This document shows positions 2-4,108 of a stretch of 64,000 nucleotides of DNA, piece after piece; position 1 is the first letter of the stretch; every line of letters starts with the position of its first letter. Source of the stretch: Mongoliibacter sp. (GTDB taxonomy: Bacteria; Bacteroidota; Bacteroidia; Cytophagales; Cyclobacteriaceae); contig NZ_REBN01000166.1 of NCBI RefSeq assembly GCF_007692705.1, positions 1-64,000 of the forward strand. The letters run 5' to 3'. Below the pieces are notes generated by a model. That model saw only the letters and a program-made list of their open reading frames with translations. It was not told where the DNA came from and ran no database searches. Both the position numbers and the translations under genes were made by a program.

Positions 2-76
2 TCCAAAAGGATAAAAATATTCAATCGCGATGAATGGTCACAGGCTTCGGGTGACTTTAATGTCCGAGGAAACTAA
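2..76 (+). CDS. C-terminal tail of an upstream gene (partial)
   Basis: The second frame is open from the window edge to a TAA at 74-76 and encodes about 24 residues ending in the motif DFNVRGN. It stops 21 bases before the start of the double-glycine peptide gene, as expected of an upstream co-directional gene. The stretch is too short for family assignment. It may equally be a chance open frame; the sensible residue composition and the spacing are the only support. Confidence 0.4.
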   Translation, partial: SKRIKIFNRDEWSQASGDFNVRGN

Positions 77-97
77 TTTTAAATAAATCTAAAAATC

Positions 98-319
98 ATG
101 AAAAAGTCAAGTTTAGAAATGCTCAGACTTACTTCTGATGAAGTACTGGGAAGAAGTCAGATGAAGAAGATTACTGGGGGAGCTAGATTCACCTGTTCTT
201 GCTCCGATGGTAGTACCTCATGGGATGGAAACTATAGTACTGCTATGCAAATTTCGAATGCTATAAATAATGAATGTGGAAGTGCAGGTGGTTCTTGTCA
301 TGCTGCCCCACAGCAGTGA
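98..319 (+). CDS. Double-glycine leader natural-product/bacteriocin-type peptide precursor
   Basis: This 73-residue product has a bacteriocin-type leader (residues 1-28) ending in the segment QMKKITGG, like the GG-leader precursors of Bacteroidota that contain L...E.L....MKKI.GG. Cleavage after Gly27-Gly28 would release a 45-residue core with cysteines at 33, 35, 60 and 67, rich in Ser, Gly and Asn and with a C-S-C motif near its start. The spacing would allow two disulfides or thioether cross-links. No modification enzyme is seen in the window. A C39-peptidase exporter that cuts at GG sites starts 1.3 kb downstream on the same strand, which supports secretion. A strong hairpin directly follows the gene. 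The leader type is recognised; the activity of the mature peptide is unknown. Confidence 0.8.
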   Translation: MKKSSLEMLRLTSDEVLGRSQMKKITGGARFTCSCSDGSTSWDGNYSTAMQISNAINNECGSAGGSCHAAPQQ

Positions 320-344
320 TATTTCAACATTAAAATAGTTTTAT

Positions 345-373
345 TGGCCATATCTATTTCGATATGGCCATTT
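345..373 (+). terminator. Hairpin (attenuator or terminator) after the GG-peptide gene
   Basis: A perfect 10-bp stem (TGGCCATATC at 345-354 with GATATGGCCA at 361-370) with a 6-base loop is followed by TTT. It lies 25 bases after the peptide stop and 14 bases before the next start codon. The U tract is short, so partial read-through or mRNA 3'-end protection is as likely as full termination. Either would make the small peptide more abundant than the downstream products. Confidence 0.6.
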
Positions 374-384
374 AAGTTAAAAAA

Positions 385-1560
385 ATGTTTATGCGATACA
401 TAATATCTTTCTTTATTATCACACTATTTTCCTGTTCCGAAAAAACTGGTGATATCAGATCGGGTTATTTCTCCAATGTTCAGTTTTCATTAGATACAGT
501 TATCATTGATCCTGGAATTAATATAATTTTTTTGGAATATGATCTCCTTAATGCGGACAAAAGCATTGATGATAAATACCTTTTTAATTTTAATATGGAT
601 GACCATTCACTTGAAAAAATTAACCTGAATACTTTGCGTCTTGAGGAAAAGCTTCCTTTTGAAAAAGAAGGCCCCAACGGAACAGGCCCATCTTTTGGGG
701 GCTTAAAAATTCGAAATGAAAATCAATTCACCATTGGTGGGATGAACCGGACAGAATTATTTTCTTTGAATGGAGAAAAATTAAAGACAATTCGTTATGA
801 TAGTTTTTTTTTAGAAAGTAACCCATCGGTAGCTGGCGAGTTTGTAAGTCCAATTACTTTTCTTGAAGAAGAGTCCAATCGCTTATATGTCTTGATTGAT
901 CAAAAGGCGAATAAGAGTTATGCTTTCGGTATACTTCATTTGGATAACTATGAAATTATTAGAATGCCGCTGAAAACTTTTGAGGACTTATACGATTATG
1001 GCTTTACCTTTTTCATGGGTCAGAGCAGTATAGGTTTTGGACCAGGTAAGGGAATTGATATGTTTGGTACTAAACTGGTACTATCCAATCAAATTACAAG
1101 TGCATTAATGGTTTATGATACGGAGATGGATTCGCTTTATACAAAAGATTATTGCAGCAAACTAATTGCCGATAAAAAGGTGAGACCCTATCAATTGGAG
1201 CATGAAACTGAGGAAAGTTTAGAAGCTGAATACTCAAGATTCCATCAGGAGATAAATTTTTTAGCCCCATTTTGGGATGAGAAAAACCAAGTCTTTTATC
1301 GCTTTGCTTATCAGGAAATGCCATCTGAATCCAAAGAAGATGTGCAAATAAAATCGAAAATTTACCTGACAGTTTTAGACAAAGACTTGAACCTTATAGG
1401 AGAAACATTGGTGCCTCAACTGACAAAAAAACCCGCTAAACCATTTTCCAGACAATTTCCCAAGCATTTTGCCAAGGACGGAAAAATCTGGATTTATGAG
1501 AATATCAATGATGAGATGGGGTTTGCGGTCTTAACTATCTCAAAAAAAGAAATAGGATGA
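385..1560 (+). CDS. DUF4221 family lipoprotein
   Basis: The 391-residue product starts with a short hydrophobic signal and a lipobox ending in LFSC, so Cys17 would be lipidated. The body carries repeated beta-strand-like segments and the phrase PFEKEGPNGTG, which I associate with the DUF4221 family of Cyclobacteriaceae and other Bacteroidota, probably a beta-propeller-like fold. Function is unknown. It lies between a double-glycine peptide gene and a C39 exporter gene on the same strand (53 bases before the latter), so a role near peptide export, immunity or sensing is possible but is only inferred from position. The domain call is from memory of the family and not from a search. Confidence 0.7.
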   Translation: MFMRYIISFFIITLFSCSEKTGDIRSGYFSNVQFSLDTVIIDPGINIIFLEYDLLNADKSIDDKYLFNFNMDDHSLEKINLNTLRLEEKLPFEKEGPNGTGPSFGGLKIRNENQFTIGGMNRTELFSLNGEKLKTIRYDSFFLESNPSVAGEFVSPITFLEEESNRLYVLIDQKANKSYAFGILHLDNYEIIRMPLKTFEDLYDYGFTFFMGQSSIGFGPGKGIDMFGTKLVLSNQITSALMVYDTEMDSLYTKDYCSKLIADKKVRPYQLEHETEESLEAEYSRFHQEINFLAPFWDEKNQVFYRFAYQEMPSESKEDVQIKSKIYLTVLDKDLNLIGETLVPQLTKKPAKPFSRQFPKHFAKDGKIWIYENINDEMGFAVLTISKKEIG

Positions 1561-1612
1561 AACTCCTGTTCTCTATCCTTCCTATCTGTTTTAAATTTTC
1601 AATTCTTAACTT

Positions 1613-2926
1613 TTGAAAACCAGTTTCTCCTTCTACAAGCAACCCGATACCAAGGACTGTGGACCGACCTGCCTTCGCATCATAGCAAAACACTATGGCA
1701 AGCTGATATCCTTAAAAGAAATCCGTGAGATATCGGAAACGACCAGAGAAGGAAGCAGCTTGCTGAAACTGAGTGATGCTGCAGAGGCCATGGGGTTTAA
1801 AACCATAGGCGCAAAATTGAATTTCAATAAACTCAGGGAAGCCCCCCTTCCATTTATTGTTCATTGGAACAAACACCACTATGTAGTGGTGTATAAAATC
1901 AAAAAGGATACCGTCTATATTTCCGACCCTGCTTATGGCTTGATCAATTATTCAAAGGAAGAGTTTATCTCCAGATGGATCGGCAACAATGCCGATGAGC
2001 ATACCAAAGAAGGTATTACGCTCCTGCTTGAACCTACCCCAACATTCAGAAAAATGAAATGGGAAGGCAAAGAGAAGCGTTCCCTCAGCTTCCTTTTCAA
2101 GTACCTCTTCAATTATAAAAACCTGATAGCTCAACTGGCTATCGGATTACTGGTAGGTAGTCTGTTGCAGTTGATTTTTCCTTTCCTGACACAGAGTATA
2201 GTAGATGTGGGGATCCAAAACCAGGATATCAACTTTATTTACCTGGTCCTTTTTGCCCAGATCATGCTCTTCCTCGGAAGGATGAGTGTAGAAGTGCTTC
2301 GGAGTTGGATATTGCTCCACCTAACTACCCGGATCAATATTTCCTTGGTTTCGGATTTTTTTATCAAGCTGATGAACTTGCCCATTTCCTATTTCGATAC
2401 CCGGATGACGGGAGATATCATGCAGCGCATCGGGGACCACCGCAGGATAGAGAACCTGCTGACGGGAACTACGCTCAGTACCCTATTTTCTTTTTTCAAC
2501 CTGATCGTTTTTGGTGCTGTCCTGATTTATGACAGCCTTACGATTTTTTTGATCTTTCTTGGAGGAAGTGTAATATACCTTGCTTGGGTGTTGTTTTTTA
2601 TGAAGCGGCGTAGGGAACTGGATTATAAGCGCTTTGCACAGATGAGCCAGGAACAGAGCACTGTGATAGAACTGATCAACGGTATGCAGGAAATCAAGAT
2701 GCACAATGCCGAAAAGCAAAAGAGATGGAGTTGGGAATTTGTGCAGGCCCGGTTGTTTCAGGTATCGATTCAGTCCCTTTCTATTGATTTTACCATGAAA
2801 ATCGCAACCCAAACTTTCATTTTTCATGGTAAATCAATCATAAAACAAACCCGGCAGATACAGGGAAATTTCCGGTATATAGGTTACCAAAAACAGCACA
2901 AGCAAACTCACCAAAAGAAAGGGTAG
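1613..2926 (+). pseudogene. Peptidase-C39 ABC exporter, truncated (no ATPase domain)
   Basis: The gene begins with TTG; this start gives the normal family N-terminus ahead of the KQPDTKDCGPTCL motif. Residues 1-about 140 are a C39 peptidase with catalytic Cys16, His89 and Asp105, which removes GG leaders. Residues from about 155 form the ABC transmembrane domain. Family resemblance stops near residue 389 (about position 2781), in the middle of the membrane domain. The remaining frame runs through an inverted repeat and then antisense to the end of dctM. Full-length relatives have about 730 residues with a C-terminal nucleotide-binding domain, absent here. As presented the exporter cannot work alone. 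This may be a real rearrangement or an assembly chimera. It probably served the GG peptide at 98-319. Confidence 0.85.
2782..2840. repeat. Imperfect inverted repeat at the exporter/dctM junction
   Basis: Arms at 2782-2802 and 2819-2840 are near-perfect reverse complements (one extra T in the left arm plus minor differences), separated by about 16 bases. The right arm contains the stop codon and last codons of dctM (stop at 2834-2836). The left arm begins exactly where ABC-exporter homology ends. An inverted copy of a gene end at a homology breakpoint suggests fold-back rearrangement or a chimeric join. Confidence 0.7.
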
Positions 2927-4108
2927 GCCTGCTTTACTGATTTTTTCCAAGGAGACATTGCCTATACTGGAAGCTACAAAAAGGCAGATTCCCACAGGAG
3001 GTGTCGTCAACCCGATCACCAGATTGACCACCATGATCATGGCAAACTGTATCGGATCCACACCCACATGCACAGCTACTCCGAGCAATACAGGGAATAG
3101 AATAAGCAATGCGGCTATGGTTTCCATAAATGCCCCAACAAAGAGCAATAGGATATTGATCATCAGCAGGATCAATAGCTTGTTTTCGGTGATGTTGAGC
3201 AAGCCAGCTGCAATCATTTGTGGTATTTCATCCACTGTCATGATCCAGGCAAAGAGATTGGCAAAGCCTACCAGGACCATCAGTGAGGCAGTGGTCTTGG
3301 CCGATTCCAAAATGATCTTGGGCAACATGGCCAATTTGAGTTCTTTGTAAACAAACAGACCTATCAAAATGGCATAAACTACCGCTACAATGGATGCTTC
3401 TGTAGGTGTAAATATCCCGCCTATTATTCCGAAAAGAATCAGCAAGGTCATCATGATAGCCCAAAATGCCTGATAAAAACTCTTGAACATCTTGATGGCA
3501 GAGACACGCTCCTTTTTGGGATAGTTTCTTTTGACCGATATCATATAAGTGACGCCCATCAATCCAAGACCCAATAGTAATCCCGGAACAATTCCTGCTA
3601 CAAACAACTTTCCTACCGAAAGCCCTGTCAAGGTTGCCGCAATGATCATCGGCAAACTGGGAGGAATAATCGGTCCCAAAGTGGAGGAAGTTGCAGTTAC
3701 TGCACAGGAAAACTCCTTGTCATAGCCTTCTTTTTCCATGGCAGGAATCATGACCGCACCAATGCTGGCGGTATCTGCTATGGCTGTTCCAGATATGCCA
3801 CCAAATAACATGGAAGCCCCTACATTGGCCAAACCCAAACCTCCCCGGATATGCCCCAGAAAAGCATTACAGAAATGGATGATCCTACCGGTAATCCCAC
3901 TCGCATTCATCAGATTTCCGGCAAGTATAAACCCCGGAATGGCCAAGAGTACAAATACATCTATGCCTGCATACATTTTTTGAGGAATGACAATCAGTGG
4001 TAGGTCGGTAAAAAGGAGATAAAAGAAGGAAGAAAGCCCTAAGGCAAAAGCTATTGGAAAACCCAGAACCAGTAAAAGCACAAAGACAATAAAAAGAAGA
4101 ATGATCAT
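2834..4108 (-). CDS. dctM: TRAP transporter large permease (DctM)
   Basis: This 424-residue polytopic protein carries the DctM hallmarks: the GGISGTAIADTASIG region, an IP.ME..GY segment and LGPIIPPS. It is the 12-TM subunit that couples Na+ flow to uptake of a substrate, usually a carboxylate, delivered by DctP. Length and C-terminus are normal for the family, so this gene is intact despite the odd sequence just beyond its stop. Its start overlaps the end of dctQ by four bases (ATGA), giving translational coupling in a dctP-dctQ-dctM operon. The substrate cannot be read from the sequence. Confidence 0.93.
   Translation of the reverse strand: MIILLFIVFVLLLVLGFPIAFALGLSSFFYLLFTDLPLIVIPQKMYAGIDVFVLLAIPGFILAGNLMNASGITGRIIHFCNAFLGHIRGGLGLANVGASMLFGGISGTAIADTASIGAVMIPAMEKEGYDKEFSCAVTATSSTLGPIIPPSLPMIIAATLTGLSVGKLFVAGIVPGLLLGLGLMGVTYMISVKRNYPKKERVSAIKMFKSFYQAFWAIMMTLLILFGIIGGIFTPTEASIVAVVYAILIGLFVYKELKLAMLPKIILESAKTTASLMVLVGFANLFAWIMTVDEIPQMIAAGLLNITENKLLILLMINILLLFVGAFMETIAALLILFPVLLGVAVHVGVDPIQFAMIMVVNLVIGLTTPPVGICLFVASSIGNVSLEKISKAGLPFLLVSLLVLFLVTYIPEISLYLPGLFYD

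What the first reader, a model, noticed from the sequence alone, without database searches (positions are those of the whole stretch)
98..2926. Peptide-secretion locus: four-cysteine GG-leader peptide, DUF4221 lipoprotein and C39 exporter
Seen: a 73-residue precursor with a double-glycine leader and a core with Cys33, 35, 60 and 67; a DUF4221 lipoprotein; a C39-peptidase ABC protein, all on one strand. Known: C39 exporters cut after GG and export the core. Inferred: the mature 45-residue peptide is secreted and the lipoprotein acts in immunity, sensing or surface retention. No modification enzyme is present, so this may be a simple disulfide peptide system of Cytophagales that is not well described.
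Basis: partly seen in the sequence, partly recalled or inferred. Interest (0 to 1): 0.7.

Follow-up and report, generated by a model that had tools for sequence, protein, structure and literature searches.

The report
Displaced peptide–propeller cassette with broken exporter
The window starts with one copy of a modular gene pair, a small disulfide-type secreted peptide and its matching beta-propeller surface protein, that related bacteria keep in tandem arrays of exchangeable cassettes; the "exporter" beside it is only a broken piece, and the pairs look like secreted toxins with their own antidotes, though no function has been tested.

Summary
The peptide (98-319) and DUF4221 lipoprotein (385-1560) are real. 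The "C39 exporter" (1613-2926) is a truncated copy: it matches an intact exporter on another contig only to base 2782, has no ATPase domain, and runs antisense into a TRAP transporter gene. The pair belongs to a larger, apparently undescribed Cyclobacteriaceae system. The core operon is VKOR oxidoreductase - peptide - beta-propeller partner - C39 exporter - HlyD - DUF6734. Around it lie further cassettes (up to nine peptides per genome): an almost constant 28-residue leader, a hypervariable 4-7-Cys core, a family-matched propeller partner and often a fragment of the exporter's 5' end. Core family predicts partner family (48 of 53 cross-species nearest neighbours, about 6 expected; 0 of 2000 within-species permutations as good). 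Many cassettes, including the window's (13-78), carry a 5' RNA pseudoknot with strong covariation and no Rfam match. My best reading: secreted peptide toxins with cognate propeller immunity proteins, swapped by recombination as in orphan CDI or T6SS modules; receptor-ligand pairs are the main rival. Architecture is shown; toxicity, immunity and switching are inferred. The window copy itself probably depends on an exporter elsewhere in the genome.

The parts
13..78 (+). type-I 5' RNA element: stem 19-22/32-35, stem 36-41/51-56, pseudoknot 45-50/64-69
   Evidence: 42-sequence alignment A2: 97.4% of cells paired, 9 of 16 pairs with changes on both sides (all 6 pseudoknot pairs), 0/500 shuffles as high, slid controls at most 53% paired; 83.8 bits with model R1; no Rfam match
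98..319 (+). GG-leader precursor peptide, 73 aa: leader 98-181, core 182-316 with Cys33/35/60/67
385..1560 (+). DUF4221 beta-propeller lipoprotein, the cognate-type partner (real start probably 391)
   Evidence: Pfam PF13970 150.8 bits; AF2 pLDDT 86, best PDB match 3s9j E 6e-16; partner family 5 together with L038, L039, L047
1613..2782 (+). 5' fragment of a C39/ABC exporter gene (C39 domain plus part of the membrane domain, no NBD), TTG start
   Evidence: 86% nt identity to intact exporter in contig C129 up to this point; Pfam C39 and partial ABC_membrane only; conserved TTG start
2783..2926 (+). non-homologous read-through tail, partly antisense to the TRAP gene
   Evidence: no match to the exporter beyond 2782; overlaps ORF 2834-4108 on the - strand
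2834..4108 (-). TRAP-type transporter large subunit (named from its sequence character, not by a profile search): neighbour that marks the chromosomal site
   Evidence: homologues border peptide cassettes in Cecembia rubra (L034 15037-16737) and Aquiflexum lacus (L033 15242-16994)

Best explanation
The locus is one cassette of a polymorphic peptide/partner system of Cyclobacteriaceae. Shown: a near-constant leader is joined to one of many Cys-rich cores, and each core type travels with its own beta-propeller protein, mostly a lipoprotein. A full operon (VKOR-thioredoxin, peptide, partner, C39 exporter, HlyD, DUF6734) is flanked by further cassettes that often end in a fragment of the exporter gene and sometimes begin with a fragment of the VKOR gene. 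The window copy is such a flanking cassette beside a TRAP locus, with the exporter cut at residue ~390. Inferred: the leader routes the peptide to the C39 exporter, which cuts after GG and secretes the core through the HlyD/TolC-type channel; VKOR-thioredoxin forms its disulfides; the core acts on close competitors at the envelope; and the exported propeller binds and neutralises the cognate core, so the pairs are toxin and immunity genes. Homology in the 5' element, leader and exporter 5' end lets pairs be exchanged with the slot in front of the complete exporter. The pseudoknot probably controls translation or stability of the peptide message. At this locus export must rely on the exporter in contig C129, or the cassette is silent.
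For: Core/partner matching: Mantel 0.326, 0/1000 permutations; within-species permutation 0.31 against null 0.086 (sd 0.033), 0/2000; nearest foreign core has a partner of the same family in 48/53, 6.0 expected. Out of sample, six pairs in Cecembia-like genome G135 fit. Same exporter behind different cassette families, exporter fragments and VKOR fragments. Exporter (>=76% identity) listed in 33 genomes, all peptide-positive, none of 345 peptide-negative. One cassette sits in different positions in Arthrospiribacter and Cecembia lonarensis. Orphan partners without peptide, as in orphan immunity arrays (PMC5361080). The window genome's partnerless peptide (C129:5654, core family 6) has its partner type elsewhere, 65% identical to the Aquiflexum lacus partner. 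Leader, C39 exporter and thiol oxidoreductase resemble the bacteroidetocin machinery (PMC6671954).
Against: No killing, binding or secretion data. Bacteroidetocins, the nearest proven toxins, have no immunity protein. Many DUF4221 genes stand alone (at least five of the eight matches in this genome), so the propeller's original role is not immunity to these peptides. Partners of about 380 aa would be unusually large for peptide immunity proteins. A few peptides have no linked partner. The only complete exporter in this genome has lost the conserved TTG start frame.
Confidence: 0.5

Rival explanations
1. Ligand-receptor pairs: the peptides are secreted signals or kin-recognition tags and each propeller lipoprotein is the surface or periplasmic receptor.
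For: Cognate matching fits receptors equally well. Beta-propellers commonly bind ligands. Solitary DUF4221 genes could be receptors for foreign peptides. Peptides without a linked partner are harmless under this model.
Against: No regulator, kinase or anti-sigma gene was seen among the operon genes examined. Arrays with orphan partners and gene fragments are typical of toxin/immunity loci (PMC3150448, PMC5361080).
Confidence: 0.25
2. Non-antagonistic complex: the peptide is a small disulfide-bonded subunit or cofactor that binds its propeller on the cell surface (ligand capture, adhesion, hydrolysis).
For: One-to-one pairing and adjacency; a Sec-exported Cys-rich peptide with the same RNA element sits before a DUF5128 propeller in contig C159; one partner family carries a thioredoxin domain.
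Against: Does not by itself explain hypervariable cores, cassette arrays or orphan partners.
Confidence: 0.12
3. A decaying remnant: the window cassette is an unexpressed leftover of recombination with no present function, whatever the wider system does.
For: Truncated exporter at the boundary with TRAP; in the congener Mongoliibacter ruber the peptide in front of the corresponding DUF4221 gene is frameshifted and its exporter fragment is broken.
Against: In the window the peptide and DUF4221 reading frames, leader, Cys pattern and RNA pairing are all intact.
Confidence: 0.2
4. One reading: a self-contained three-gene secretion locus with a working C39 exporter.
For: Gene order peptide - lipoprotein - C39 protein on one strand.
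Against: No ATPase domain; homology stops at 2782; the tail is antisense to TRAP.
Confidence: 0.03

Closest known systems
Bacteroidetocins (class IIa-like peptides of Bacteroidales; PMC6671954)
   Same: GG-leader peptide with cysteines, C39 ABC exporter, thiol oxidoreductase, Bacteroidota
   Different: Bacteroidetocin regions are four genes without immunity protein; here each core is paired with its own beta-propeller, in arrays of many different pairs, with HlyD, DUF6734 and a VKOR-thioredoxin carrying a C39-like domain
Orphan CDI/Rhs toxin-immunity modules (PMC3150448)
   Same: Constant trafficking part, variable active part, cognate downstream partner, extra modules with gene fragments next to the complete locus, exchange between genomes
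   Different: Small GG-leader peptides through a C39/type I exporter instead of CdiA/Rhs; partner is an exported propeller; toxicity unproven
V. cholerae T6SS effector-immunity arrays (PMC5361080)
   Same: Successive replacement of pairs at one slot by homologous recombination, retained immunity genes
   Different: Here whole peptide-partner pairs are mostly kept, not only the partner; different secretion route
TIGR04149 GG-leader precursors (rSAM-modified RiPPs of Bacteroidota)
   Same: Similar leader sequence; matches just below cut-off
   Different: No radical SAM gene in the operon genes examined; hypervariable Cys-rich cores
DUF4221 and DUF5128 propellers (PDB 3s9j)
   Same: Partner fold and Pfam family
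   Different: Function unassigned; most DUF4221 genes of this genome are not linked to a peptide

Membership tests
C39 peptidase-containing ABC exporter (TIGR01193 type) | N-terminal C39 peptidase with Cys/His/Asp | tested here: met
   PF03412 126 bits; DCG, HWNKHHYV and ISDP motifs present
C39 peptidase-containing ABC exporter (TIGR01193 type) | complete membrane domain and C-terminal ATPase (NBD) | tested here: not met
   window ORF ends after ~390 homologous residues, no NBD; TIGR01193 170 bits against cut-off 523.85
Double-glycine (class II) bacteriocin | GG-type leader recognised by a C39 exporter | tested here: met
   leader ...MKKITGG conserved in most family members; intact C39 exporter of the same system in C129; cleavage itself not tested
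Double-glycine (class II) bacteriocin | antibacterial activity of the core | not testable with these tools
   needs an assay
Double-glycine (class II) bacteriocin | cognate immunity protein encoded beside the peptide | tested here: inconclusive
   a family-matched partner lies beside it; immunity function unproven
Bacteroidetocins | region of TM protein, peptide, thiol oxidoreductase and C39 exporter without immunity gene | tested here: not met
   operon has partner, HlyD and DUF6734; paper text
Bacteroidetocins | sequence similarity of the core | not tested
   no bacteroidetocin sequence was compared
TIGR04149 rSAM-modified RiPP | score above model cut-off | tested here: not met
   18.7 bits for the window peptide, 22.7 and 23.4 for relatives, cut-off 25
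TIGR04149 rSAM-modified RiPP | linked radical SAM maturase | tested here: inconclusive
   none among the operon genes identified; whole neighbourhoods were not scanned for rSAM
DUF4221 (PF13970) | score above gathering cut-off; beta-propeller fold | tested here: met
   150.8 against 23.4 bits; AF2 model pLDDT 86, best match 3s9j E 6e-16, TM 0.65/0.70
Polymorphic toxin/immunity module (CDI/Rhs/T6SS style) | constant trafficking part with variable active part and cognate partner | tested here: met
Polymorphic toxin/immunity module (CDI/Rhs/T6SS style) | extra modules with fragments of the delivery gene; orphan partners | tested here: met
   exporter 5' fragments in arrays; orphan partners
Polymorphic toxin/immunity module (CDI/Rhs/T6SS style) | toxicity of the variable part, specific neutralisation | not testable with these tools
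   needs an assay
Known Rfam RNA family (5' element) | match to any of 4227 models | tested here: not met
   only three chance-level hits at E 0.3-0.6, on the strand opposite to or away from the element

The most novel reading that the evidence does not exclude
A recombinational cassette archive: bacteria keep a library of secreted peptide/beta-propeller pairs flanked by pieces of the VKOR and exporter genes, and swap them into one expression slot in front of the complete exporter, thereby changing their secreted peptide and matching antidote or receptor; the pseudoknot in front of each pair is a new cis-acting RNA that controls, or marks, the exchanged unit.
Probability: 0.25. Interest if true: 0.9.

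Novelty: new variant of a known kind. Interest (0 to 1): 0.72.

Why it matters
It turns an isolated "peptide plus DUF4221" observation into a predicted, testable system. It gives beta-propeller families of unknown function (DUF4221, DUF5128) a candidate role as partners of secreted peptides, provides about a dozen natural peptide/partner specificities for binding and killing tests, and adds a new covarying RNA pseudoknot without an Rfam entry. If the pairs are toxins and antidotes, this would be a polymorphic bacteriocin arsenal with linked self-protection in Bacteroidota, where the known bacteroidetocins have none.

Tried and rejected
Working local exporter: rejected (truncation). The 5' repeat as a short coding sequence (SKRIKIFNRDEWSQASGDFNVRGN): set aside because the changes are compensatory in an RNA pseudoknot. 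NVEALA peptides as a wide relative: only one weak match in 118 phylum genomes, outside the family. Rfam and full-text papers for DUF4221, NVEALA and propeller plus bacteriocin: nothing relevant (no preprints held). Weak pseudoknot-model hits in G007, G009 and G012: no peptide follows, taken as chance, whereas the weak hit in G019 precedes a peptide and partner. Single-sequence folding gave no significant z-scores, so the case rests on covariation. Gene conversion between the window fragment and C129 (a 93-bp identical run in an 86% background) and leader homogenisation within genomes (0.826 vs 0.794, P 0.0099) are suggestive only: genome relatedness was not modelled.

Full report
WHAT IS IN THE WINDOW. 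The window is bases 1-64000 of contig C32 of a draft genome (4.42 Mb, 285 contigs, 99.8% complete). Its congener in the set, G001, has a contig of the same length as the Mongoliibacter ruber record found by the search for related loci, so the window strain is in or near Mongoliibacter, Cyclobacteriaceae. The first 3 kb hold a 73-aa GG-leader peptide (98-319), a DUF4221 lipoprotein (385-1560) and a C39-domain ORF (1613-2926), all on the + strand, followed by a TRAP-type transporter on the - strand. The third ORF is not an exporter: it is 86% identical in DNA to an intact 736-aa exporter in contig C129 up to window base 2782, and then stops matching. No nucleotide-binding domain follows and the last 93 bases of the ORF lie antisense within the TRAP gene.

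THE SAME GENOME. Contig C129 carries the more complete form: GG peptide, exported protein of about 380 aa, complete C39/ABC exporter, HlyD, and a second GG peptide. Its exporter lacks the in-frame TTG start conserved in most relatives, as if one base were missing; it could start at ATT, or the draft could be wrong. Contigs C32 and C129 begin with the same 55 bases, which suggests that the assembly broke in a repeat just upstream.

RELATIVES. An alignment of eight precursors found 33 loci in named Cyclobacteriaceae (Cecembia, Algoriphagus, Aquiflexum, Cognataquiflexum, Mariniradius, Nitritalea, Rhodonellum, Arthrospiribacter, Mongoliibacter and others) and matches in 51 of 396 family genomes from 19 of 84 genera, with up to nine per genome. 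The close exporter type (C39 domain at least 76% identical) appears in 33 of the listed genomes; all 33 are peptide-positive and none of the 345 peptide-negative genomes is among them, the nearest being a 74% broken fragment in G191.

ANATOMY OF THE SYSTEM. In about ten loci the full order is VKOR protein (C39-like domain, VKOR, thioredoxin), peptide, partner, C39/ABC exporter, HlyD, DUF6734. Further cassettes lie on either side. Most consist of peptide, partner and a 5' fragment of the exporter gene, ending near codon 77 in Algoriphagus, near 256-280 in Cecembia and its neighbours, and near 390 in the window. Several cassettes are preceded by fragments of the 3' end of the VKOR gene. In the single-contig genome G135 the unit VKOR - element - peptide - partner - exporter fragment repeats three times before the copy with the complete exporter. 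Different cassette families occupy the slot before the complete exporter in different species, and one cassette lies upstream in Arthrospiribacter but downstream of DUF6734 in Cecembia lonarensis. The window's TRAP neighbour also borders cassettes in Cecembia rubra and Aquiflexum lacus, so the window copy is a flanking cassette at a conserved site.

COGNATE PAIRS. The 28-residue leader is almost constant and the cores are not. Most of the 75 peptides are followed within about 250 bases by an exported protein of 355-480 aa. For the 53 pairs with complete sequences, core similarity and partner similarity are correlated (Mantel 0.326, 0 of 1000 permutations). The test holds when partners are shuffled only within species and only between-species comparisons are scored (0.31 against 0.086, sd 0.033, 0 of 2000), and the nearest core in another species has a partner of the same family in 48 of 53 cases, 6 expected. 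Six pairs in G135, which was not used to define the families, fit as well. The window pair belongs to family 5 with Algoriphagus ornithinivorans, A. marincola and Cognataquiflexum. Partners are DUF4221, DUF5128 or unassigned. Models of two families, DUF4221 and the unassigned family 12, are beta-propellers with PDB 3s9j as best match. The partnerless second peptide in C129 has core type 6, and a partner of that type, 65% identical to the Aquiflexum lacus partner, is encoded elsewhere in the same genome. Partners without peptide also occur.

THE RNA ELEMENT. A 60-nt element lies 72-76 nt (in some 93-103 nt) before many peptide starts, including window 13-78. On 42 sequences a two-stem plus pseudoknot structure has 97.4% of cells paired; 9 of 16 pairs, including all 6 of the pseudoknot, show changes on both sides; no shuffle of 500 reaches the observed values and slid versions pair at most 53%. 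In 39 relatives all strong matches of the model lie before these peptides or before a Sec-type Cys-rich peptide with a DUF5128 partner in C159. There is no Rfam match. Algoriphagus arrays often carry a second, different leader.

MECHANISM. Shown by sequence: the leader/core/partner modularity, the pairing, the fragments, the shared slot and the RNA structure. Established for the families (general knowledge): C39 exporters cut after GG and export; VKOR-thioredoxin proteins form disulfides. Inferred: cores are antagonistic peptides and partners their immunity proteins (0.5), with receptors (0.25) and structural partners (0.12) as rivals; separately, the window copy may itself be silent (0.2). 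The exchange of pairs follows the logic described for CDI/Rhs orphan modules (PMC3150448) and V. cholerae T6SS arrays (PMC5361080). It differs from bacteroidetocins, which use similar export machinery but have no immunity protein (PMC6671954). Whether exchange is programmed, or only the trace of ordinary recombination, is open.

LIMITS. Drafts dominate the sample; percentages depend on the sampled genomes; the partner clusters were cut at one threshold; relatedness of genomes was handled only by within-species permutation. No preprints were searched. No activity was tested.

Noticed in passing
L022 (G000:C159) 3157-3437 and 1939-3138, - strand: A Sec-signal Cys-rich small peptide carries the same pseudoknot element and is followed by a DUF5128 6-bladed propeller lipoprotein: a second export route for the same kind of pair.
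   Followed up: partly
L014 (G000:C1) 1108-1308: Another Sec-signal Cys-rich small peptide directly before a DUF4221 gene.
   Followed up: no
L063 2618-4057, L056 12059-13507, L064 7271-8710: One partner family (480 aa) carries a C-terminal ResA/TlpA-like thioredoxin domain (profile match shown for the L063 member) and goes only with CC...CC cores; it might reduce its peptide's disulfides.
   Followed up: partly
L004 (G000:C129) around 1756-1790: The only complete exporter of the genome has lost the conserved TTG start frame (one base fewer than relatives) and may be weakly or not translated.
   Followed up: partly
L048 7241-15406 against L050 178-8346: 8.2 kb of the locus is 92.8% identical between Arthrospiribacter ruber and Cecembia lonarensis, with 807 bases identical in the exporter gene: recent transfer or conversion.
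   Followed up: partly
A5; e.g. L036 5111-5216, L058 8055-8160: Array cassettes of Algoriphagus have a second conserved leader with palindrome AGTAAATATTTACT, GGTATAGGTATT and a hairpin GATCGG-N5-CCGATC.
   Followed up: no
L033 11314-12939: DUF6734 protein of unknown function is the usual last gene of the complete operon; role in peptide maturation unknown.
   Followed up: no
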